Shown: piece by piece, positions 1,389 through 31,994 of the stretch
How the letters are laid out: each line of letters begins with the position of its first letter
Position numbering within the stretch: the first letter of the stretch is position 1
DNA from: a virus
Length of the DNA: 35,743 nt
Virus record (IMG/VR): IMGVR_UViG_3300049446_000001
Location: 1-35,743 of that record
Strand: one strand, 5' to 3'
Made by a program: the position numbers and the translations under genes
Notes under the pieces: generated by a model
What the model was told of the DNA's origin: nothing
The model's database searches: none
The model's input: only the letters and a program-made list of their open reading frames with translations

Positions 1389-1580
1389 ATGACTGTGCCG
1401 ATCCTCGGTGAGCCCGACCGACCCGGCGTCACGGTCATCAAGCGCGGCGTCTTCGTCTACGAGTGTCCGACCTGCCGCAAGCGGGAGCGGTTCGATGACG
1501 CCTACGGGCCTGCATGCACGGGTCCTGGTGCGACGGATCAGCACCCGATGCGGCTCATGGCGTTGCTGGGTCGGACATGA
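1389..1580 (+). CDS. Small zinc-ribbon-like protein
   Basis: A 63-residue protein containing YECPTC near residues 24-29 and a later PACTGP followed by HP. This is the spacing of a small zinc ribbon or knuckle with three cysteines and possibly a histidine. Small Cys-motif proteins of this kind are common among phage neck and head genes and are sometimes annotated as FmdB-like. It starts three bases after the homing endonuclease stop and overlaps the glycosyltransferase start (ATGA), so it is probably translated in the same operon. Zinc binding and function are inferred. Confidence 0.6.
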   Translation: MTVPILGEPDRPGVTVIKRGVFVYECPTCRKRERFDDAYGPACTGPGATDQHPMRLMALLGRT

Positions 1581-2674
1581 GGCTGCACGTCGTCAGCCTG
1601 CCCCATAGTCAGACCACTCGCGAGTACGACACGTGTGCGTTCACGGCGAAGGTCCGCAAGTTCGCGGACATGATGACGAGCCTCTCGCACGAGGTTTACC
1701 TCTATGCAGGGGATGAGAACGACGCCGAAGTCACCGAGCTCGTGATCTGCATCACGCGGCAGGAGCAGCGGGATCTCGGCATCCCGGGCCCTGAGCGTGT
1801 GTTCGATGCGTCGTTCGACATACGCGAGCCGCAGTGGCAGCTGATGAACGCTCGAGCGATCGAGGGGATCGAGGAACGCAAGCAACCAGGTGACCTCTTG
1901 TGTGTCATGGCGGGCTGGAACCACAAGCCGATCATGGATGCAACGGGGCTTCGGACGGTGGAGTTCGGGATCGGGTATCCGGGAAGCTTCGCGCCGTTCC
2001 GGGTGTTCGAGTCCTTCGCATGGATGCACGCCACCTACGCGGCCCAGCAAGGACTGTCGCAGGCCGATGGCCGCTTCTACGACGTCGTCATCCCGTCCTA
2101 CTTCGAGGCGGATGCGTTCCCGATGGGCGATGGTTCGGGAGGTTACCTCCTCTACATCGGCCGGCTGACGCAGCGCAAAGGCCTCGCCGTGGTCAAGGAT
2201 CTCGCCGAGCGAACCGGCCTACCGTTGGTCGTGGCTGGCGACGGTGAGCCAGAGTGGATCCCACCCGAGTGCACCTACATCGGACACGTCAACCCTGAGC
2301 AACGGGCCAAGGCCATGGGCGATGCGATCGCGACCGTGGTGCCGACCCTCTACCTAGAGCCGTTCGGGTCGGTGGCCTGCGAGTCGATGATGTGCGGAAC
2401 GCCCGTCCTCACGACCGACTGGGGAGCCTTCACCGAGACTGTGGTTCAGGGCAGGGACGGATGGCGCTGTCGGACCCTTGGCGAGTTCGAGTGGGCCGCG
2501 CTGCACGCCACCGAGCTCGACCGACACGTGATCCGAGCCAACGCCATGGCACGATTCTCCACCGAGAACGTCCGTTGGCAGTATGACCGCTACCTCCGAA
2601 AGATCGCTGCGCTGGATGATGTCGGTTGGTACGAAGCGGCCACTCCTCCGATGCCTGAGCTGATAGGAGCCTGA
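1577..2674 (+). CDS. GT4-family glycosyltransferase (GT-B fold)
   Basis: 365 residues starting at ATG 1577, which overlaps the previous stop by 4 bp. The C-terminal half has the hallmarks of a retaining GT4 enzyme: the donor-domain opening YIGRLTQRKG at residues 193-202 and an EX7E motif, E261-P-F-G...E269, followed by MMCGTPVLTTDWGAF. These bind the nucleotide-sugar diphosphate. The N-terminal Rossmann-like domain (MRLHVVSLPHS) would bind the acceptor. There is no membrane segment. Its place among head genes suggests glycosylation of virion protein or of a host surface glycan. It may cooperate with the fucose cassette at 9250-14004. Sugar and acceptor cannot be read from sequence. Confidence 0.85.
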   Translation: MRLHVVSLPHSQTTREYDTCAFTAKVRKFADMMTSLSHEVYLYAGDENDAEVTELVICITRQEQRDLGIPGPERVFDASFDIREPQWQLMNARAIEGIEERKQPGDLLCVMAGWNHKPIMDATGLRTVEFGIGYPGSFAPFRVFESFAWMHATYAAQQGLSQADGRFYDVVIPSYFEADAFPMGDGSGGYLLYIGRLTQRKGLAVVKDLAERTGLPLVVAGDGEPEWIPPECTYIGHVNPEQRAKAMGDAIATVVPTLYLEPFGSVACESMMCGTPVLTTDWGAFTETVVQGRDGWRCRTLGEFEWAALHATELDRHVIRANAMARFSTENVRWQYDRYLRKIAALDDVGWYEAATPPMPELIGA

Positions 2675-9237: not shown

Positions 9238-9280
9238 TGTGGGGGTGGGATGGCTGGGGAGTCGCTGTCCCACCCCCGCG
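9238..9280 (+). promoter_or_regulatory. Inverted repeat covering the gmd start codon
   Basis: GGGGGTGGGA at 9241-9250 is perfectly complementary to TCCCACCCCC at 9268-9277, with a 17-base loop. Wobble and G-C pairs extend it to 13 bp. The 5' arm contains the only plausible ribosome site of gmd and the first base of its ATG at 9250, so the folded RNA would hide the start. There is no U-run, so it is a poor intrinsic terminator. A role in damping translation or stopping read-through after the capsid gene is inferred. Confidence 0.55.
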
Positions 9281-10218
9281 CTCTCATCACGGGGATAACA
9301 GGCCAGGATGGTTCCTACCTCGCCGAACTCCTCCTCGAGCAGGGGTACGAGGTCCACGGGACAGTCCGCAGGTCGTCCCTGCCGAACCTCAGCCGCCTCG
9401 ACGGCATCAGGGATCGGCTGCACCTTCACCACGTCGATCTGACCGACGCCACCGGCCTCGCAGGAGTGATCGCGGCCTCGGATCCCGACGAGGTCTACAA
9501 CCTCGCAGCACTGTCGGACGTGAGGATCAGCTTTGAGGCCCCGGAGTTCTCCGGGAACGTCACGGGACTCGGCTGCACCAGGATCCTGGAACTCTTGCGG
9601 CGCATGAAGCCTGAGGTGCGGTTCTACCAGGCTGGCTCCTCGGAGATGTTCGGGATGTGTCCGAACGTCCCCACGTCGGAGACGGATCCCTTCCTCCCGG
9701 CCTCTCCCTATGCGGTCGCGAAGGTCTACGCGCACCACATGACCAGGCTCTATCGCGACGGGTACGGGATGTTCGCGGCCAACGGCATCCTGTTCAACCA
9801 CGAATCCGAGCGCCGCGGCATCGACTTCGTGACCCGGAAGATCACCGTCGGTCTGGCTGAGATCGTGGCAGGACGCTCGAACGAGCTCGTGCTGGGGAAC
9901 CTCGATGCATCTCGTGACTGGGGATGGGCACCCGACTTCGTAAAGGCGATATGGCTCATGCTCCAGGTCGACCAGCCAGCCGACTACGTCATCGCGACAG
10001 GGGAAACACATTCAGTCCGAGAGTTCCTGGCCGCCGCGTTCGATGTGGTCGGCCTGGACTGGCGGGACTACGTGAAGACCGATCCACGCTACCTCCGCCC
10101 GCTGGATCCTCCGGTGCTGCTGGGCGATGCATCGAAAGCCCAGCGCGAGCTCGGTTGGAAGCCGGAGGTCAGCTTCTCCGAGATCGTTCACATGATGGTT
10201 GCCGCAGATCTGAAGTGA
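9250..10218 (+). CDS. gmd: GDP-mannose 4,6-dehydratase
   Basis: 322 residues, slightly shorter than the usual 340-370. It converts GDP-D-mannose to GDP-4-keto-6-deoxymannose with bound NADP. The Rossmann glycine motif GITGQDGSYLAE lies at residues 15-26, followed by NLAALSDV (84-91), the catalytic SSE at 130-132 and the Tyr-Lys pair Y154-A-V-A-K158. LFNHESERRG (181-190) is a family hallmark, as is DWGWAPDFVKA in the C-terminal half. It is the first gene of the sugar cassette and lies directly after the capsid gene. The start codon sits in a strong hairpin. The product feeds the synthase at 10802. Confidence 0.93.
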   Translation: MAGESLSHPRALITGITGQDGSYLAELLLEQGYEVHGTVRRSSLPNLSRLDGIRDRLHLHHVDLTDATGLAGVIAASDPDEVYNLAALSDVRISFEAPEFSGNVTGLGCTRILELLRRMKPEVRFYQAGSSEMFGMCPNVPTSETDPFLPASPYAVAKVYAHHMTRLYRDGYGMFAANGILFNHESERRGIDFVTRKITVGLAEIVAGRSNELVLGNLDASRDWGWAPDFVKAIWLMLQVDQPADYVIATGETHSVREFLAAAFDVVGLDWRDYVKTDPRYLRPLDPPVLLGDASKAQRELGWKPEVSFSEIVHMMVAADLK

Positions 10219-10805
10219 TGGCGCCTCGCTTCGTCATCACAGGGACCGGCAGACACGGCTCGCGCTACGTCGCGGATGTCCTCACGGCCTCGGGTATCCG
10301 GACCGGACACGAGAAGTGGTGGAACAGCGTCGGCGCAGAGAACGACGGCTATGTCGGGGAATCGTCGTGGCTTGCGGCACCGCATCTGGCCGAGTTCGAC
10401 GGCGTCGTGTTCCATCAGCTCCGTAACCCTTTGCTGGTGGTGAACTCTCTCGTCAAGTTCCCCGAGCCATCACGCGAGGATGCGGTACGCCGTCGGACGG
10501 TGTCGTTATGCGGAGACCCGATCGAGCAGGCGATCCAGATGGTGCTTCATTGGCGCCGGATCTGTGATGCCGCGAGCAGCGCTCGGTGGCGCCTTGAGGA
10601 CTTCTCGGGCGAGATCGTGATGATGATCGCCAAGCGCGTCTGGTGTCCGGTGCTTCCTACCGACGTCGTCGAGGCGATCACGATCACGCCGAGGGATGTC
10701 AACGCTCACACGAGCAGGCCGCGTCTGGAGTGGAGCGACCTCCCTGCGGGGCCCGAGACGACCGCCTTGCGGAGGGCCGCGGAGAAGGACGGGTACTACC
10801 CTTGA
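10218..10805 (+). CDS. Sulfotransferase-like P-loop protein
   Basis: 195 residues starting at ATG 10218, one base overlap with gmd. The N-terminus FVITGTGRHGSRYVADVL (residues 5-22) has the glycine/serine loop that binds the 5'-phosphosulfate of PAPS in sulfotransferases. QLRNPLLVVNSL (67-78) matches the 3'-phosphate-binding R...S segment of that fold. Residues GESSWLAAPHL between them are also typical of small phage and bacterial members. Its place between the two GDP-fucose genes suggests it modifies the same glycan. A nucleoside kinase-like P-loop activity is the main alternative, since the substrate cannot be read from sequence. Confidence 0.65.
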   Translation: MAPRFVITGTGRHGSRYVADVLTASGIRTGHEKWWNSVGAENDGYVGESSWLAAPHLAEFDGVVFHQLRNPLLVVNSLVKFPEPSREDAVRRRTVSLCGDPIEQAIQMVLHWRRICDAASSARWRLEDFSGEIVMMIAKRVWCPVLPTDVVEAITITPRDVNAHTSRPRLEWSDLPAGPETTALRRAAEKDGYYP

Positions 10806-11731
10806 GATGCTTGGTGACCGGTGGAGGCGGGTTCCTGGGCAGGGTGGTCGTGCGTCAGCTGATGACGTTCGGCCACGAGGTCCACTCGCCGCGGAGTTGG
10901 GTCTACGACCTGCGGAAGCGGCAGAAGGTCGAGCAGATGCTCCAGGACATCTCCCCGGAGATCGTCGTGCACCTCGCTGCGGTCGTGGGGGGGATCGGGG
11001 TCAACCAGGCCCGCCCCGGTCGGCTGTTCTACGACAACGTCATCATGGGCGTCGAGCTCATGGAGCAGGCGCGCCGCGCAGGGGTGAGCAAGTTCGTCAC
11101 GATTGGGACGGCGTGCGAGTACCCCGCAGACGCCCCGGTGCCGTTGACGGAGGAGGGCATCTGGGACGGCTACCCCGCCCTTGCCACCGCTCCGTACGGG
11201 ATGGCGAAGAAGGCTCTTCTGGTTCAGGGCCAGGCGTACCGGCAGGAATACGGGCTCAACGCCATCCACCTCATCCCGACGAACCTCTACGGGCCTGGGG
11301 ACAACTTCGACTCGGACACCGGCCATGTCGTCGCCGGCATGATCCGCAAGCTCTCCGACGCCGTCGACAACAAGGACTCCAGCGTCACCCTCTGGGGGAC
11401 TGGTCGTCCCACGCGGGATTTCCTCTACGTCGACGATGCCGCTCGAGGGATCGCCTTGGCGACGGAGGACTACGACGACCCCGAACCGCTCAACATCGGC
11501 ACCGGCGAGGAGCTATCGATCGGTGAGCTCGCTCTCATGGTGTCGCAGTTGTGCGGGTTCTACGGGGAGATCGTGTGGGATGCCAGCTTCCCCGACGGGA
11601 CGCCTCGGCGTTGTCTCGATACCTCGCGAGCCCGAACGTTGATCGGGTTCGAGCCGGTGGTGCTGCTGGACGAGGGGCTTCGGAGCACCGTGCAGTGGTA
11701 TCAGGCGAAAGACCGCAGCCCTGCGGTCTGA
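10802..11731 (+). CDS. fcl: GDP-L-fucose synthase
   Basis: 309 residues. It epimerises and reduces GDP-4-keto-6-deoxymannose to GDP-L-fucose using NADPH. N-terminal TGGGGFLG (residues 6-13) binds the cofactor; TACEYP (103-108) carries the family cysteine C105, with Thr in place of the usual Ser. The catalytic Y132-G-M-A-K136 pair, NLYGPGDNFD (161-170), H175 in GHVVAGMIRK and WGTGRPTRDFLYVDD (198-212) are all present. The start is TTG 10802, whose last two bases are the first two of the preceding stop TGA. No ATG is available in frame. This strict coupling supports a stoichiometric pathway with gmd. Confidence 0.9.
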   Translation: MRCLVTGGGGFLGRVVVRQLMTFGHEVHSPRSWVYDLRKRQKVEQMLQDISPEIVVHLAAVVGGIGVNQARPGRLFYDNVIMGVELMEQARRAGVSKFVTIGTACEYPADAPVPLTEEGIWDGYPALATAPYGMAKKALLVQGQAYRQEYGLNAIHLIPTNLYGPGDNFDSDTGHVVAGMIRKLSDAVDNKDSSVTLWGTGRPTRDFLYVDDAARGIALATEDYDDPEPLNIGTGEELSIGELALMVSQLCGFYGEIVWDASFPDGTPRRCLDTSRARTLIGFEPVVLLDEGLRSTVQWYQAKDRSPAV

Positions 11732-11734
11732 CCG

Positions 11735-12487
11735 GTGATCTCGCTCTGCTGTCCGACTCGGGGCAGACCGGGACGGTTCGCGACGATGCTTCGCTCGGCA
11801 AGGGCCACCGCCAAGCGGCCCTTCGAGGTCTGCGCCTGGCTGGACGACGACGATCCGTCGGTCTATCCCACCGATCCGATCGTCCGATACGGTTCGGGGC
11901 CGCGCCCGTACGTCGACGGGAGCCTCTGTACGTCGGGACTCTGGACGAAGGCATGGGATCTCGCCACCGGGGACATCGCGATGCTCGCCGCCGATGACAT
12001 CCTGTTCCACACGCCGGGCTGGGACGTCGCGGTGGAAGAGGCGATGGCGGCGGTTCCGGACCGGATCGTCATGGTCTACGCGGACGACGGGACGAGGCGG
12101 AAGGCGCCCGTCAACCCGTTCGTGCATCGTCGTTGGATCGAGGCCGCTGGGTTCACGCCCGACGGGTGGCAAGGGTGGTTCGCAGACGAGTGGGTGTGGA
12201 CCTTGGCCGCCAACCTCGGCCGCGTGAAGTTCCTCAAGCAGGTGCGGATCGCGCATTTCCATCGACCGAGGTCGGATGCCACCTATCGGGATGGTGAGGC
12301 AGCGCGGGAGGCTGTGGGAGGTTGGCGGGGGATGCGCGAACGGTTCTACGAGCCCGACATGGTCAGACGGCGTGACGTGCAGTTGGAACACCTGGCGTCG
12401 CTGATGACCTCCGGGCCGTTGCCATTGCCGGATCCCGTTCCTGATTGGTTGAGTGAATCGGTGACGCTGTCCCTGGCGGCGCGGTGA
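11735..12487 (+). CDS. GT-A-like glycosyltransferase
   Basis: 250 residues from GTG 11735, four bases after fcl. The N-terminus ISLCCPTRGRPGRF is typical of GT2-type enzymes. WLDDDDPSVY at residues 35-44 and AADDILF at 85-91 are the two acidic motifs that bind the metal and nucleotide-sugar; the second is the DXD-like site. W180-region WFADEWVW may hold the catalytic acid. There is no membrane segment, so a soluble acceptor such as a phage protein is possible. It overlaps the next glycosyltransferase by 4 bp. Donor identity is unknown; GDP-fucose is a guess from context, although most fucosyltransferases belong to other fold families. Confidence 0.75.
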   Translation: MISLCCPTRGRPGRFATMLRSARATAKRPFEVCAWLDDDDPSVYPTDPIVRYGSGPRPYVDGSLCTSGLWTKAWDLATGDIAMLAADDILFHTPGWDVAVEEAMAAVPDRIVMVYADDGTRRKAPVNPFVHRRWIEAAGFTPDGWQGWFADEWVWTLAANLGRVKFLKQVRIAHFHRPRSDATYRDGEAAREAVGGWRGMRERFYEPDMVRRRDVQLEHLASLMTSGPLPLPDPVPDWLSESVTLSLAAR

Positions 12488-14004
12488 ACGATGACACGCT
12501 CGTCGCCGTCCATTGTTACAGCGGCGACGCTGACAACGTCCGTGCTTTCATGCCCCAGTATCTGCACCACGGTTGTCCGGTTGTGGTGCTCTCGCCCCGA
12601 GACGCACCCGTGCGTATCGAAGGCGTCGACTGCCGTTCCGCCGGCAGGCGCGGCTACTACGGTCAGGCCTCGCTCGACCGCCAGCGCGAGCACCTGAAGA
12701 TCCTGCTGGAGTATCCACAGCGATACTTCCTGCTGAACGATGCGGATTCGTTCTGCCTCTCACCGGAGATCCCCAGGTACCTCTATGAGAACGCCGAAGG
12801 GACGATCTGGTCGACGGAGGTCAAGGAACCCAGGCCCCATCCCTCGCCCTATCCGAAGCTCGGCTTTCACCCGCCGTACTTCATGACCCGGGAGGTCATC
12901 GAGCGGCTGCTGGCCGTGGGGCCGATCAAGGCGCACCCGATCACGCCGTTCATCGACTGGATGATGGTCGCGCTCGCGTGCGAGGCCGGCGTGGCGCACA
13001 GGTCGTTCCCGGACGGTCGCTCGTTCCCCGCGTGGAAGCACGGCCCGATCCCCGAGACCACCGAACTCGGACACAACTACGTCCACCGCGAGGACACACG
13101 CGGGATGGATGGGGCGCGTCGGATGGTCCAGCAGGTCCAGCGGGGCGTCGTGTTCGTCCATTCGGTGAAGCATCCTCACGTCCGCGACCAGCTCGTCCAC
13201 GCCTACGAACTTCGTCAGCGCAGGGAGGCCTTGAGACCGCCCAGGCTGCGACCTGCCCCCCGGGCCCCGTCTACCCCCCCAGACGGCCAACTGAGCGTCT
13301 TGGTGGCCTTCAGGGACCAGAGCCCCGACGGGCACCGTACGAGGCTCTGGGACGTGATCCGGGGGCTCCTGCGCCAGCAGATGCCGGGCGCCGAGGTGCT
13401 TGTCGGGACCGACGACCACGTCCCGTTCTGCAAGACGATCGCGATCAACCGAGCCGCGGCGCAGGCGTCGGGAAACGTCTTCTACATCCTCGATGCGGAT
13501 TCATGGGTCCCCGCTTGGCAGGTACGTGAGGCTCACGCCTGGGTGGACAGCGTGGCCTGGGCGAAGCCGTGGAGCATGAAGTACAAGCTCGGTCCTGAAG
13601 CGACCGCGACCGTTCTGCGGGGGGGATGGGACGGGACCTTCCGCGATGAGTGGCGCCGGGAGCTCGAGCACAGGGGCGGATACATCCCTGCGCCCCCGCT
13701 GGTCGTGTCGCGGGCAGCCTTCGAGGCGGTCGGCGGGATGGACGAGCGGTTCAAGGGCTGGGGCTCGGAGGACGTCGCGTTCTCCCAGGCCCTCTCGGCG
13801 TTGTTCGGTCGGCCGAAGATCATCCGGGGGAACTGCGTGCATCTGCATCACCCCCGGATCGGTCGCTCGGGACGCGATCTGTGGGAAGGGCAGGAAGGGT
13901 ACGCCCACATCGCCCCGCTCGCCGCCGAATACCGCCGCGCCTCCCACTCCGCCGCAGCGATGCGCGAGCTCATCCAGGCACGCGGGGTCAAGGAGATGGC
14001 ATGA
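12484..14004 (+). CDS. Two-domain glycosyltransferase
   Basis: 506 residues from GTG 12484. Two catalytic-looking GT-A units are joined by a proline-rich linker (RPPRLRPAPRAPSTPP, near residue 250). Unit 1, residues 1-240, carries LLNDADSF with D86/D88 as the DXD motif. Unit 2, from about residue 269, begins LSVLVAFRDQSPDG, has ILDADSW near 335-341 and GGMDERFKGWGSEDVAF near 416-432, the signature of the galactosyltransferase-type GT-A C-terminal domain (Glyco_transf_7C). The protein could add two successive sugars. It shares ATGA with the neck gene downstream, so the cassette is welded into the virion operon. Confidence 0.8.
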   Translation: MNDDTLVAVHCYSGDADNVRAFMPQYLHHGCPVVVLSPRDAPVRIEGVDCRSAGRRGYYGQASLDRQREHLKILLEYPQRYFLLNDADSFCLSPEIPRYLYENAEGTIWSTEVKEPRPHPSPYPKLGFHPPYFMTREVIERLLAVGPIKAHPITPFIDWMMVALACEAGVAHRSFPDGRSFPAWKHGPIPETTELGHNYVHREDTRGMDGARRMVQQVQRGVVFVHSVKHPHVRDQLVHAYELRQRREALRPPRLRPAPRAPSTPPDGQLSVLVAFRDQSPDGHRTRLWDVIRGLLRQQMPGAEVLVGTDDHVPFCKTIAINRAAAQASGNVFYILDADSWVPAWQVREAHAWVDSVAWAKPWSMKYKLGPEATATVLRGGWDGTFRDEWRRELEHRGGYIPAPPLVVSRAAFEAVGGMDERFKGWGSEDVAFSQALSALFGRPKIIRGNCVHLHHPRIGRSGRDLWEGQEGYAHIAPLAAEYRRASHSAAAMRELIQARGVKEMA

Positions 14005-28989: not shown

Positions 28990-29073
28990 GTGACTCTCAC
29001 CTACAACGCATTCAGTATCCCGGCCCCTCGCGACTCGCCATCGAAGCGTAGAAGCTATCGATGGCTCGATTGA
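28990..29073 (+). CDS. Possible 27-aa peptide
   Basis: A GTG frame with GGAGG at 28978-28982 encodes 27 residues ending YRWLD. It opposes the end of the minus-strand small gene and lies past the late terminator, so there is no obvious promoter. Listed for completeness only. Confidence 0.15.
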   Translation: MTLTYNAFSIPAPRDSPSKRRSYRWLD

Positions 29074-29212
29074 GCGCCGCGTCCAAGTCACGGGGATTCT
29101 CGGCCCCGTGACACCCACACTCGCAGGGCTTGACAGTCGAGTAGACCAGCGGGGCGACGTAGCCGTAGCACGGCGAATGGTCCGCCTCGCCGCAGAGGAT
29201 TGTCGTTGCCAT
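29012..29212 (-). CDS. Small CxCGCH-motif protein
   Basis: 66 residues on the minus strand. AGGAGG sits seven bases before its ATG, one of the better ribosome sites in the leftward operon. Cysteines at CGEADHSPC and KPCECGCHG suggest a small metal site, as in short actinophage proteins with the CxCGCH signature. The C-terminal 25 residues are helical (DLDAALNRAIDSFYASM). It follows the integrase by 35 bases in the same direction, so it would be made in lysogens. Function unknown. Confidence 0.65.
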   Translation of the reverse strand: MATTILCGEADHSPCYGYVAPLVYSTVKPCECGCHGAENPRDLDAALNRAIDSFYASMASREGPGY

Positions 29213-29247: not shown

Positions 29248-30171
29248 CTAGACTCCCTCAGCCGAGAAGGCAATAGCCCCTCCCATGACCTGCACCGCCT
29301 CTCGGGTGTCGTGACGCCGGCCGATGGACAGGTACGCCGTGGTCGTCGACACCGACTGGTGCCCCAGTAGCCTCGAGACGACCTGGATCGGCACGTTGTC
29401 GTCGGCCAACATGGAGGCGAAGGTTGACCGGAGGGTGTGAGAACGCTGCTTGCGCCCGGGTGGAAACCCGCAGTCCTTGGCCGCTTCGTGGACCCACATG
29501 GTGAACGTGTTCGGGGCGATCGGCAGGAGCCGGTCCCCAGCCGATAACTTGAAAAGCTCGCCCAGTGCCTCGGCAGCCCACGGCCCGATATCCACCTCCC
29601 TCGGCCGGCGTCCCTTCGTGCACCTCAGCACGACCACACGGCGCTCCCAGTCGATGTCGCGGCACCGGATACCGACGAACTCCGAACGGCGCGTACCGAG
29701 CGCCAGGGAGCTCAAGATGGCCCACCCCCTTCGAGGATCCCGCCACGCCGCAGCGATCAAGAGCCTCACGAGTTCGTCGATCTCGAACCGCTCCGGGGGT
29801 GCCCGGTGCACCTTGCGGGGCCGGATGAGACCCACCGGGGAGGTCAGCAGGTAGCCGCGGTGCACGGCCCAGTCGTAGAAGCTCCGGATGCCCTTGGCGT
29901 AGTGCTCCTTCGATGAGGCCTTGTCCCCCAGCGAGGCGAGGAATAGGGCGATGTGTCCCTCCGTCATCTCGAGCAGGTGAACCCGGAACCCGGTCGAGTC
30001 GGCGAGCCGATACAGCGCGTACGTGTACTGGCGGATCGTGGCCGCGCCGAGGTCGTTGGCCCCCAAAAGGGTGACCCACTCGGCGATGAGCGCAAAGCAG
30101 TCATCGGCTCCCATACAAGGATTGTGGGGCGCTGTAGCTTCTTCGGGGAACGGTCGGACGGCCGCATTCAC
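29248..30171 (-). CDS. int: Tyrosine recombinase integrase
   Basis: 307 residues. The core-binding N-domain spans about 22-120 (ATIRQYTYALYRLADSTGF). The catalytic set is complete: R161 in LGTRRSEFVGI, K186 in CTKGRR, H245-T-L-R248, H271 in LLGHQSVSTTT, and nucleophile Y280 in AYLS. It integrates and, with a partner, excises the phage. The absence of a long N-terminal arm-binding domain makes it a compact, XerC/D-sized enzyme. The first ATG overlaps the repressor stop by 4 bp, so both are expressed together. M20 is an alternative start. Confidence 0.93.
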   Translation of the reverse strand: MNAAVRPFPEEATAPHNPCMGADDCFALIAEWVTLLGANDLGAATIRQYTYALYRLADSTGFRVHLLEMTEGHIALFLASLGDKASSKEHYAKGIRSFYDWAVHRGYLLTSPVGLIRPRKVHRAPPERFEIDELVRLLIAAAWRDPRRGWAILSSLALGTRRSEFVGIRCRDIDWERRVVVLRCTKGRRPREVDIGPWAAEALGELFKLSAGDRLLPIAPNTFTMWVHEAAKDCGFPPGRKQRSHTLRSTFASMLADDNVPIQVVSRLLGHQSVSTTTAYLSIGRRHDTREAVQVMGGAIAFSAEGV

Positions 30172-30470
30172 GCGAGCGCGGGGACTAGGACTTCGGCCTC
30201 GGCAGCGCTCCCCCAGTCGGGCGGAGTGAGGTACTCCAGCGTAGAACGCTTCCTAAAACGCCCGAGGACGACCAGCTCCGGGAAGGCCGCCTCGATCACC
30301 TCTGACCCGAGAGCCTTCGCGAGCGCTTCAAGGGTCTCACGCCCGGGGTCCTTCTCATCGCTCTCCAGATAGGCGATCTGCCTAACCGAGATGTCCGAGA
30401 GGTCTTCGAGGTCCCGGCGCGTCATCCCCCGGTCCTCTCGCAGTTGGCGAAGCCGCTGCCCAAAGGTCAT
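30168..30470 (-). CDS. Xre-family repressor (CI-like)
   Basis: 100 residues. The N-terminal Xre helix-turn-helix covers about 3-58 (LRQLREDRGMTRRDLEDLSDISVRQIAYLESDEKDPGRETLEALAKALG). The 40-residue tail has no peptidase-like LexA/CI cleavage domain, so induction would not be by self-cleavage. No ribosome site precedes the ATG at 30470, and a weak promoter predicts a near-leaderless transcript. It faces a Cro-like gene across 114 bases holding two matching operators, the arrangement of a lysogeny switch. Autoregulation is inferred. Confidence 0.8.
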   Translation of the reverse strand: MTFGQRLRQLREDRGMTRRDLEDLSDISVRQIAYLESDEKDPGRETLEALAKALGSEVIEAAFPELVVLGRFRKRSTLEYLTPPDWGSAAEAEVLVPALA

Positions 30471-30584
30471 GGCGGGAAGTGTGGTGCAGGCACAGGCGTG
30501 CCGTCAGTACGCGGGTGAACGTACAGCAGGAATATCGCCGGATGGGCTTGACGGCTCCTGAGTGCCTGCACTATGGTGCCACTC
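30471..30584. promoter_or_regulatory. Lysogeny switch: divergent promoters and paired operators
   Basis: Rightward promoter: TTGACG (30548-30553), 18 bp, TATGGT (30572-30577). Leftward promoter: CTGACG (complement of 30502-30507), 18 bp, CACACT (complement of 30478-30483), weaker. Operator 1 GTGCAGGCAC (30484-30493) and operator 2 GTGCCTGCAC (30562-30571) are the same palindromic site GTGC-AG-GCAC in opposite orientation. Each lies in the promoter spacer directly beside the -10 box. Two further inverted repeats are present: GGCAC-N4-GTGCC (30489-30502) and GTACG-N8-CGTAC (30507-30524). Predicted transcripts start at or within a base or two of the two start codons. Confidence 0.75.
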
Positions 30585-30785
30585 GTGCTCAACATCACGG
30601 AACACCGCAAGCGCAAGGGCCTCACGCGGGAGCAGCTCGCCTTCAAGGCCGGCGTGACCACCCGGACGATCGTCTACATCGAGGCCGGGCGTGACTGCCT
30701 GCTCTCGACGGCGCTCGACATCGCTGCCGCTCTTGGTGTCCCGCTCAGCCGTCTCTTGGCTACCAACGGGAAGAAGGCCGCATGA
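30585..30785 (+). CDS. Cro-like Xre-family regulator
   Basis: 66 residues from GTG 30585. The Xre helix-turn-helix covers about 3-58 (ITEHRKRKGLTREQLAFKAGVTTRTIVYIEAG, ALDIAAALGVPLSRLL). An ATG at 30573 would add four residues, but it lies inside the -10 box, so translation more likely begins at GTG 30585, at the predicted transcript end (leaderless). It opens the rightward early operon and probably opposes the repressor. It overlaps the next gene by 4 bp. Confidence 0.75.
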   Translation: MLNITEHRKRKGLTREQLAFKAGVTTRTIVYIEAGRDCLLSTALDIAAALGVPLSRLLATNGKKAA

Positions 30786-31252
30786 GACTCCGTCGCAGCA
30801 AGACCCACGTCCCGATGGCCGCCTACCTCCAGTTGAACGAGAAGGACCCGGAGTTCCGCTACGAGTTGATCGTCACGCCGTTCGAGCGGGGGATGGGCCA
30901 GCACGCCGATCGGGCGCTGGGGTCTACGCACCCTGATCCCGAGTCCCCCGCTCGACGCATCTCGCGGCGCCTGATCCTGGCCGAGCTCTTCGTCACCGTC
31001 GTGGTGCTGTTCCTCGTCGGTCCGATCGTCCCCGCCCAGGCTCACGTCCCGAACGCCTGCCACTCCGGGGGACTGTTCGGCAACTACCCGCCGAGCCCGT
31101 GCACGACTCCGGTCGCCCCTCCCCCCGTTGAAGCCTCGACTCCGGTGACGGGTTCTGACGTCGGCGTGCCGCTTCTGTCGGCCGGATTCCTGATCGTGCT
31201 CGGCGGAGCCCTGCTGTGGGTCCGTGTGCTCTATCGGAAGAAAGACGCATGA
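30782..31252 (+). CDS. Membrane protein with sortase-signal-like C-terminus
   Basis: 156 residues, ATGA overlap with the Cro-like gene. A 60-residue cytoplasmic-looking basic/acidic N-part is followed by a hydrophobic helix at 64-84 and a cleavage-site-like VPAQAHVP. A short Pro-rich outside segment with two cysteines (C93, C107) follows. Then TPVTGSD at 120-126, a second hydrophobic helix at 129-149 and the tail YRKKDA. This end copies the order of a cell-wall sorting signal, but with Thr where LPxTG has Leu. It may be wall-anchored or simply a two-helix membrane protein. An exclusion role is inferred. Confidence 0.6.
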   Translation: MRLRRSKTHVPMAAYLQLNEKDPEFRYELIVTPFERGMGQHADRALGSTHPDPESPARRISRRLILAELFVTVVVLFLVGPIVPAQAHVPNACHSGGLFGNYPPSPCTTPVAPPPVEASTPVTGSDVGVPLLSAGFLIVLGGALLWVRVLYRKKDA

Positions 31253-31341
31253 GGCGCCTGCTGTTCCGTCTCCGTCACCCTCGCCTGTCCCGTCTGACCC
31301 GAGCTTGGCTTCGTGAACTTCAAGGACTGCCCACTCGATAG
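31249..31341 (+). CDS. Small basic amphipathic peptide (30 aa)
   Basis: ATG 31249 overlaps the previous stop by 4 bp. The 30 residues include eight arginines (RRLLFRLRHPRLSRLTRAWLREL) with regularly spaced leucines, an amphipathic helix pattern. No family recognised. Overlap and operon position are the only support. Confidence 0.35.
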   Translation: MRRLLFRLRHPRLSRLTRAWLRELQGLPTR

Positions 31342-31371
31342 CCCGTTTCACTTCAAGGGGGGGAACCGAAC

Positions 31372-31608
31372 ATGCTCGCGACCGCCGCGACCTTGGCAAC
31401 GGTGAGCCTGATGTTGCTTTCGGGCGCCGGCGGGTTCGTCGCGGGAGTCGCCTATGCGATCTGGTGGGCGAAGCATGAGCGCGAACGTAAGGACAACTTC
31501 CAACGCCTTCGCAAGCACCAGCTCGACCGCATCACGATCCACGGTGACGGCGCGGCGATCGTCTCGGTCCGTTCTTCGGCGATGCCCTTCGACCAGGAGG
31601 CGTCGTGA
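31372..31608 (+). CDS. Small single-span membrane protein
   Basis: 78 residues with a purine-rich AAGGGGGGGAA site at 31354-31364. Residues 3-32 are hydrophobic (ATLATVSLMLLSGAGGFVAGVAYAIWW), followed by a basic KHERERKDNFQRLRKHQ segment that would stay inside the cell. The remainder is short and polar. The 3' end overlaps the regulator gene by 4 bp. No family recognised. It and the protein at 30782 make two membrane proteins at the head of the early operon. Confidence 0.55.
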   Translation: MLATAATLATVSLMLLSGAGGFVAGVAYAIWWAKHERERKDNFQRLRKHQLDRITIHGDGAAIVSVRSSAMPFDQEAS

Positions 31609-31994
31609 AGACGCTCAGCCCGGCCGAGAGCCAGATCATGCGACTCGTCGCTCAAGGCTTCTCAACCGAGGAGATCGCCGAGATCCGGGGCAACGCGTTC
31701 CACACCGTGAGGACGCATCTGCAGAACATCCTCGGCAAGCTCCACGCCCGCAACCGCGCCCACGCCGTCGCGATCTGGTTGAGCAAGGGACGGCCCGAGG
31801 CATCGGTTCGGATCGTGGGCGTCATCGGGGAGACGAAGCTGGCCGGCGACTTCTCCCACCCTGTGCAGCTGTTCGAGAACAGGGACGGGCTGTTGGCTCG
31901 CTGCACGCGTTGTGGGGAAACCCTCCCGATCGACACGTCGAGACAACTCGTCGAGTTCAACGATCAGCACGAGCACATGGGGGTGAGCGCATGA
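31605..31994 (+). CDS. LuxR-type HTH regulator with C-terminal Cys knuckle
   Basis: 129 residues from GTG 31605. Residues 4-55 form a GerE/LuxR helix-turn-helix: LSPAESQIMRLVAQGFSTEEIAE, FHTVRTHLQNILGKLHARNRAHAVAIWL. The C-terminal part has LLARCTRCGETLPID and ends with two histidines (QHEHMG), possibly a metal-binding knuckle. There is no response-regulator receiver domain. It probably controls later phage genes or a host gene. Next gene overlaps by 4 bp. Confidence 0.8.
   Translation: MKTLSPAESQIMRLVAQGFSTEEIAEIRGNAFHTVRTHLQNILGKLHARNRAHAVAIWLSKGRPEASVRIVGVIGETKLAGDFSHPVQLFENRDGLLARCTRCGETLPIDTSRQLVEFNDQHEHMGVSA

What the first reader, a model, noticed from the sequence alone, without database searches (positions are those of the whole stretch)
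30471..30584. Symmetric lysogeny switch with leaderless transcripts
The same palindrome GTGC-AG-GCAC occurs twice in opposite orientation, each directly beside the -10 box of one of two divergent promoters. Both promoters have 18-bp spacers, and predicted starts fall on ATG 30470 and near GTG 30585. Thus both regulators may be made from leaderless mRNAs. The GTACG-N8-CGTAC repeat midway could be a third site.
Basis: partly seen in the sequence, partly recalled or inferred. Interest (0 to 1): 0.65.

Follow-up and report, generated by a model that had tools for sequence, protein, structure and literature searches.

The report
Paired operators in leaderless phage switch
In a temperate phage, the genes for the lysogeny repressor and its rival Cro-like protein face away from each other, each with the same protein-binding site inside its promoter and, very probably, mRNA that starts directly at the start codon; this is a tidy example of a known kind of switch rather than a new one.

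Summary
GTGCCTGCAC occurs only twice in the 35.7-kb phage contig, once in each of two divergent promoters, in opposite orientation, between the -35 and -10 boxes. Each copy ends exactly 13 nt before a start codon (ATG 30470 for the repressor, GTG 30585 for the Cro-like protein). The matched promoter arms (23 nt, 18 paired) were reached by 0 of 500 shuffles. The repressor has the weakest Shine-Dalgarno match of all the genes listed, while most other genes have a good one, and both -10 boxes lie 7 nt from their start codon. This supports leaderless mRNAs. In 15 other actinophages with the int-repressor/Cro order, 10 of 30 starts have a -10-like box at exactly 7 nt (0.9 expected), so leaderless regulators look usual there. 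PY54 cI and cro mRNAs are experimentally leaderless, and in phage BPs the operator also sits inside the early promoter. The GTACG-N8-CGTAC "third site" is no more than chance would give. Identical operators alone cannot make a two-state toggle, so some asymmetry must exist. No relative with the same operator pair was found, so conservation is untested. New member of a known kind.

The parts
30484..30493 (-). Operator copy in the repressor promoter (GTGCCTGCAC on the - strand), between -35 and -10
   Evidence: Exact match, one of only two in the window
30562..30571 (+). Operator copy in the Cro-side promoter (GTGCCTGCAC), between -35 and -10; extended dyad AGTGCCTGCACT
   Evidence: Exact match
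30478..30507 (-). Leftward promoter P-rep: CTGACG (30507-30502), 18 bp, CACACT (30483-30478)
   Evidence: Sequence; one of only 4 YTGAC-N19-YANNNT matches in the window, both strands; weak -10
30548..30577 (+). Rightward promoter P-R: TTGACG, 18 bp, TATGGT
   Evidence: Only promoter-like hit in 29500-31500, 0.1 expected
30168..30470 (-). Repressor gene, 100 aa, HTH_3; start ATG 30470 = predicted +1
   Evidence: Pfam HTH_3 3.2e-12, PHROG transcriptional regulators; Shine-Dalgarno score +1.4, weakest of the genes listed
30585..30785 (+). Cro-like gene, 66 aa, HTH_3; start GTG 30585 = predicted +1 (ATG 30573 lies inside the -10 box)
   Evidence: Pfam HTH_3 9.7e-11 for the longer frame from ATG 30573; homologs in Streptomyces phages, 39-45%
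29248..30171 (-). Tyrosine integrase, GTGA overlap with the repressor stop, no Shine-Dalgarno: probably translated by coupling in the rep-int operon
   Evidence: Pfam Phage_integrase 5.4e-18; Shine-Dalgarno score +0.5
30507..30524 (.). GTACG-N8-CGTAC inverted repeat just upstream of the P-rep -35 box; not above chance
   Evidence: 19% of shuffles
30489..30502 (.). Extra half-site, GGCAC-AGGC-GTGCC, present only on the P-rep side; possible source of asymmetry
   Evidence: GTGC/GCAC six times in 117 bp against 1.0 expected from the window's density

Best explanation
This is the immunity switch of a temperate, probably actinobacterial, phage. P-R makes the Cro-like early operon and P-rep makes repressor plus integrase, back to back; both mRNAs begin at the first base of the start codon. 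A dimer of the 100-aa repressor binds GTGCCTGCAC in the spacer of each promoter and blocks RNA polymerase: at P-R it holds the lytic genes off, at P-rep it limits its own synthesis. The Cro-like protein, whose recognition helix is similar (VTTRTIVYIE against ISVRQIAYLE), probably binds one or both of the same sites and shuts P-rep during lytic growth. The preference that makes two states possible would come from bases around the sites: a 12-bp dyad at P-R against 10 bp plus an extra half-site at P-rep. Shown: sites, promoter and start-codon geometry, protein families, absence of Shine-Dalgarno sequences. Inferred: transcript ends, which protein binds which site, direction of the regulation.
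For: Site pair and identical 13-nt distance to both starts; significance; HTH and integrase families; no Shine-Dalgarno at the repressor or the Cro-like gene in a phage where most genes score about -8 to -13; -1 base is C at both, the base preferred in mycobacterial leaderless mRNAs (PMC4633059); same gene order in Whack, IdentityCrisis, BruceB, Charlie and others with a -10-like box peaking at 7 nt from the start (10 of 30 starts, 0.9 expected); operator between -10 and -35 of P-R in phage BPs (PMC4557955); leaderless cI and cro mRNAs in PY54 (PMC4488713).
Against: P-rep's -10 (CACACT) is weak. Half-sites only 6 bp apart are closer than the one-turn spacing of most HTH operators (own knowledge). 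No homologous switch region was found, so no conservation test. The host is not known, so common leaderless translation is assumed, not shown. Equal operators cannot give a toggle by themselves.
Confidence: 0.66

Rival explanations
1. Only the Cro-like protein, or a host factor, binds the two sites; the repressor acts elsewhere, for instance at GTACG-N8-CGTAC.
For: Both small proteins have an HTH_3 domain and nothing in the sequence assigns the site to one of them. A second inverted repeat lies next to the P-rep -35 box.
Against: The GTACG repeat is at chance level. A site in the spacer of P-R that does not bind the repressor would leave the lytic promoter open in a lysogen.
Confidence: 0.17
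2. The repressor is made from another promoter (a P-RE-like establishment promoter or read-through), with a normal leader; CACACT is not a -10 box.
For: CACACT matches only 3 of 6 consensus bases; the promoter fails the consensus scan.
Against: CTGACG-18-CACACT mirrors the good P-R promoter around the operator and has the same 7-nt distance to the start; no Shine-Dalgarno sequence for a leadered mRNA to use.
Confidence: 0.15
3. Integration-dependent immunity as in phage BPs: attP lies in the repressor gene, the free-phage repressor is degraded through its C-terminal tail (...LVPALA), and integration cuts the tail off.
For: Same order int-rep/cro, 100-aa repressor, tail ending in -ALA resembling ssrA-like tags.
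Against: No tRNA-like T-loop core lies in the repressor gene or tRNA fragment near it, whereas IdentityCrisis and Brujita repressors carry tails that look tRNA-derived and end in -AA. No host genome to test attB.
Confidence: 0.12
4. The inverted pair is a chance or duplication relic without regulatory role.
For: No relative with the same pair.
Against: 0 of 3000 and 0 of 500 shuffles; identical placement in two divergent promoters of two HTH genes.
Confidence: 0.04

Closest known systems
Mycobacteriophage BPs immunity cassette (int 32 - rep 33 / cro-like 34), PMC4557955
   Same: Gene order; divergent Prep and PR; operator palindrome between -35 and -10 of PR and a second site at the repressor side; ~100-aa active repressor; in the BPs-type phage BruceB a TACAAT box lies 7 nt from the rep ATG
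   Different: Operator sequence (CGACATATGTCG) and arrangement differ: the second BPs site overlaps the Prep start rather than the spacer and is degenerate; BPs attP is inside rep, not found here; the proteins were not compared with those here
Telomere phage PY54 cI/cro switch, PMC4488713
   Same: Both regulator mRNAs are leaderless, shown by RACE; small Cro-like protein and a palindromic operator between divergent genes
   Different: Cro binds a single operator next to cI; not the same operator in both promoters; enterobacterial host
Rhodococcus phage Whack and Mycobacterium phage IdentityCrisis switches
   Same: int-rep/HTH order, (Whack) 4-bp rep-int overlap, -10-like boxes 7-8 nt from both start codons
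   Different: Different repressor and Cro proteins; no shared inverted operator pair of 8 bp or more
Cluster O mycobacteriophages PL1/PR2, PMC4351075
   Same: Divergent SigA-like promoters both predicted to give leaderless mRNAs
   Different: Not the repressor/cro region of a described switch; different palindrome

Membership tests
CI/Cro-type divergent lysogeny switch | Divergent HTH repressor and Cro-like genes next to an integrase | tested here: met
CI/Cro-type divergent lysogeny switch | Operators for the regulators within both promoters | tested here: inconclusive
   Sites present and beyond chance; binding not testable
CI/Cro-type divergent lysogeny switch | Mutual repression with two stable states | not testable with these tools
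   Model only
Leaderless mRNA | +1 at the start codon, no 5' UTR or Shine-Dalgarno | tested here: inconclusive
   -10 boxes 7 nt from both starts, no Shine-Dalgarno; 5' ends not mapped
BPs-type integration-dependent immunity | Order int-rep/cro with rep and int in one leftward operon | tested here: met
BPs-type integration-dependent immunity | attP core inside the repressor gene | tested here: inconclusive
   No tRNA-like core found in rep; non-tRNA attB cannot be excluded without the host
BPs-type integration-dependent immunity | Degradation tag at the repressor C-terminus | not testable with these tools
   Tail ends ...VPALA; suggestive only
LexA/CI-type self-cleaving repressor | C-terminal S24 peptidase domain | tested here: not met
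   100 aa, HTH only in Pfam

The most novel reading that the evidence does not exclude
The two operators are truly equivalent for both proteins, so DNA binding only sets the total output and the choice between lysis and lysogeny is made by other features: AUG against GUG leaderless starts, -10 strength, and turnover of a repressor with an -ALA tail.
Probability: 0.1. Interest if true: 0.55.

Novelty: new member of a known kind. Interest (0 to 1): 0.32.

Why it matters
It gives a compact, uncharacterised switch with one clear operator and two clean start points, easy to test with reporters. The wider pattern seen on the way, -10 boxes 7 nt from the start codons of repressor and Cro genes across actinophages, suggests that leaderless regulators are common in these switches, which is testable with public transcript-end data.

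Tried and rejected
Relatives of repressor, integrase and portal in viral contigs: none; the four distant Cro relatives (39-45%) lie in unrelated regions. Integrase in bacterial genomes: none. The two-operator pattern in viral contigs (2 hits) and bacterial genomes (16 hits): the viral hits are not flanked by divergent regulators, no ORF near the genome hits resembles the repressor or Cro, and 14 of the 16 lie inside longer reading frames, so all are taken as chance. Phages sharing terminase (54%, L009, L010) or capsid: no comparable switch in those checked. GTACG-N8-CGTAC as third operator: chance level. tRNA-type attP in the repressor or integrase region: none seen. A first inverted-repeat script had an error and was replaced.

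Full report
What is there. The window is a 35,743-base virus record with terminase, portal and other structural genes on the left and early genes on the right. At 29248-30785 lie a tyrosine integrase and a 100-aa HTH repressor, both leftward, and a 66-aa HTH Cro-like protein rightward. Between them, in 114 bp, are two divergent promoters. Written 5' to 3' toward each gene they read CTGACGGCACGCCTGTGCCTGCAC-CACACT-TCCCGCC-ATG (repressor) and TTGACGGCTCCTGAGTGCCTGCAC-TATGGT-GCCACTC-GTG (Cro side). Both have 18-bp spacers, and in both the same 10 bp, GTGCCTGCAC, fill the -10 end of the spacer. The distance from operator to start codon is 13 nt and from -10 to start codon 7 nt, in both.

Is it more than chance? 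GTGCNNGCAC occurs nowhere else in the window. Dinucleotide-preserving shuffles of the intergenic region never gave two palindromes of this form with the same half-site (0 of 3000) and never a 23-nt inverted repeat with 18 pairs (0 of 500; none of 119 other stretches of the phage). With start codons aligned, the upstream 45 nt share 24 bases (6 of 20000 random pairs reach this). YTGAC-N19-YANNNT occurs four times in the window on both strands, and two of the four are these promoters. The GTACG-N8-CGTAC repeat is real but ordinary: 19% of shuffles of that stretch have a repeat as good.

Leaderless mRNAs. A duplex score of the 22 nt before each start with the 16S tail gives about -8 to -13 kcal/mol for most genes, +1.4 for the repressor (the weakest of all those listed) and -5.1 for GTG 30585, about the mean of random 22-mers (-4.6). 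ATG 30573 of the Cro frame lies inside TATGGT and cannot be the start if that box is used. The base before both starts is C, the preferred -1 base in mycobacterial leaderless mRNAs, where ATG and GTG at +1 both work (PMC4633059). As a comparison I took 16 actinophages with an integrase, a repressor and a divergent gene in the same order (two other fetched phages did not fit the order); one near-duplicate was left out of the count. Of 30 starts, 10 have YANNNT exactly 7 nt upstream and 14 have it at 6-8 nt; 0.9 per position is expected from the sequence further upstream. The BPs-type phage BruceB has TACAAT 7 nt from its repressor ATG. So the layout seen in the window is common among such phages. 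PY54 shows by RACE that both cI and cro mRNAs can be leaderless (PMC4488713), and cluster O mycobacteriophages have a divergent leaderless pair by prediction (PMC4351075).

How it probably works. Binding of a dimer inside the spacer beside the -10 box would block RNA polymerase at either promoter, as the BPs repressor does at O_R, which also lies between -10 and -35 (PMC4557955). The repressor has no S24 self-cleavage domain. Its recognition helix and that of the Cro-like protein are alike at several positions (ISVRQIAYLE, VTTRTIVYIE; sequences), so both may read the same site; this is inference. A simple model shows that if both proteins bind both operators equally there is one steady state only, for every affinity tried and by the general argument that both synthesis rates then keep a fixed ratio; two states appear with reciprocal preference. 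Candidate sources of preference are the flanks (AGTGCCTGCACT at P-R against a 10-bp dyad at P-rep), an extra half-site GTGCC at 30498-30502 on the P-rep side and one at 30576-30580 on the P-R side (six GTGC/GCAC words in 117 bp, 1.0 expected), the stronger -10 of P-R, and other layers such as repressor turnover or integration.

Relation to known systems. It works like a CI/Cro divergent switch and, in gene order and operator placement, most like the BPs group. It is not filed as integration-dependent immunity: no tRNA-like attP core was found in the repressor gene, whereas the IdentityCrisis and Brujita repressors carry tails of that kind (reading of the sequence); but a non-tRNA attB cannot be excluded. 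The matched operator in the same place in both promoters was not seen in the 16 comparison phages (shared inverted words of 8 bp occur in a few, not in matching places).

Limits. No relative of this switch was found in phage records, viral contigs or bacterial genomes, so conservation could not be used. The host is unknown; the best integrase hits by coverage and most Cro hits are in actinophages. No transcript or binding data exist for this phage.

Noticed in passing
L123-L141 (16 actinophage switch regions): YANNNT boxes peak at exactly 7 nt before repressor and Cro start codons (10 of 30 starts, 0.9 expected), suggesting leaderless regulators are common in such phages.
   Followed up: partly
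window 30168-30171: Repressor stop and integrase start overlap (GTGA) and the integrase has no Shine-Dalgarno, so it is probably translated by coupling; Whack has a similar 4-bp overlap.
   Followed up: partly
window 30168-30200: Repressor ends in ...EVLVPALA, resembling an ssrA-like degradation tail.
   Followed up: no
window 1514-2674 and 9250-14004: Glycosyltransferases, a GDP-mannose 4,6-dehydratase and a second sugar epimerase lie among the structural genes: a possible capsid- or tail-glycosylation set.
   Followed up: no
window 29012-29212: Small Cys-rich leftward ORF with a strong Shine-Dalgarno (-12.6), downstream of the integrase, no Pfam match.
   Followed up: no
window 31605-31994: Early gene with a LuxR-type (GerE) HTH domain, matched also by a phage sigma-factor family.
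   Followed up: no
L009, L010: Two viral contigs share a 54% identical terminase but show no integrase; L010's contig has only a weak HTH match and L009's none.
   Followed up: partly
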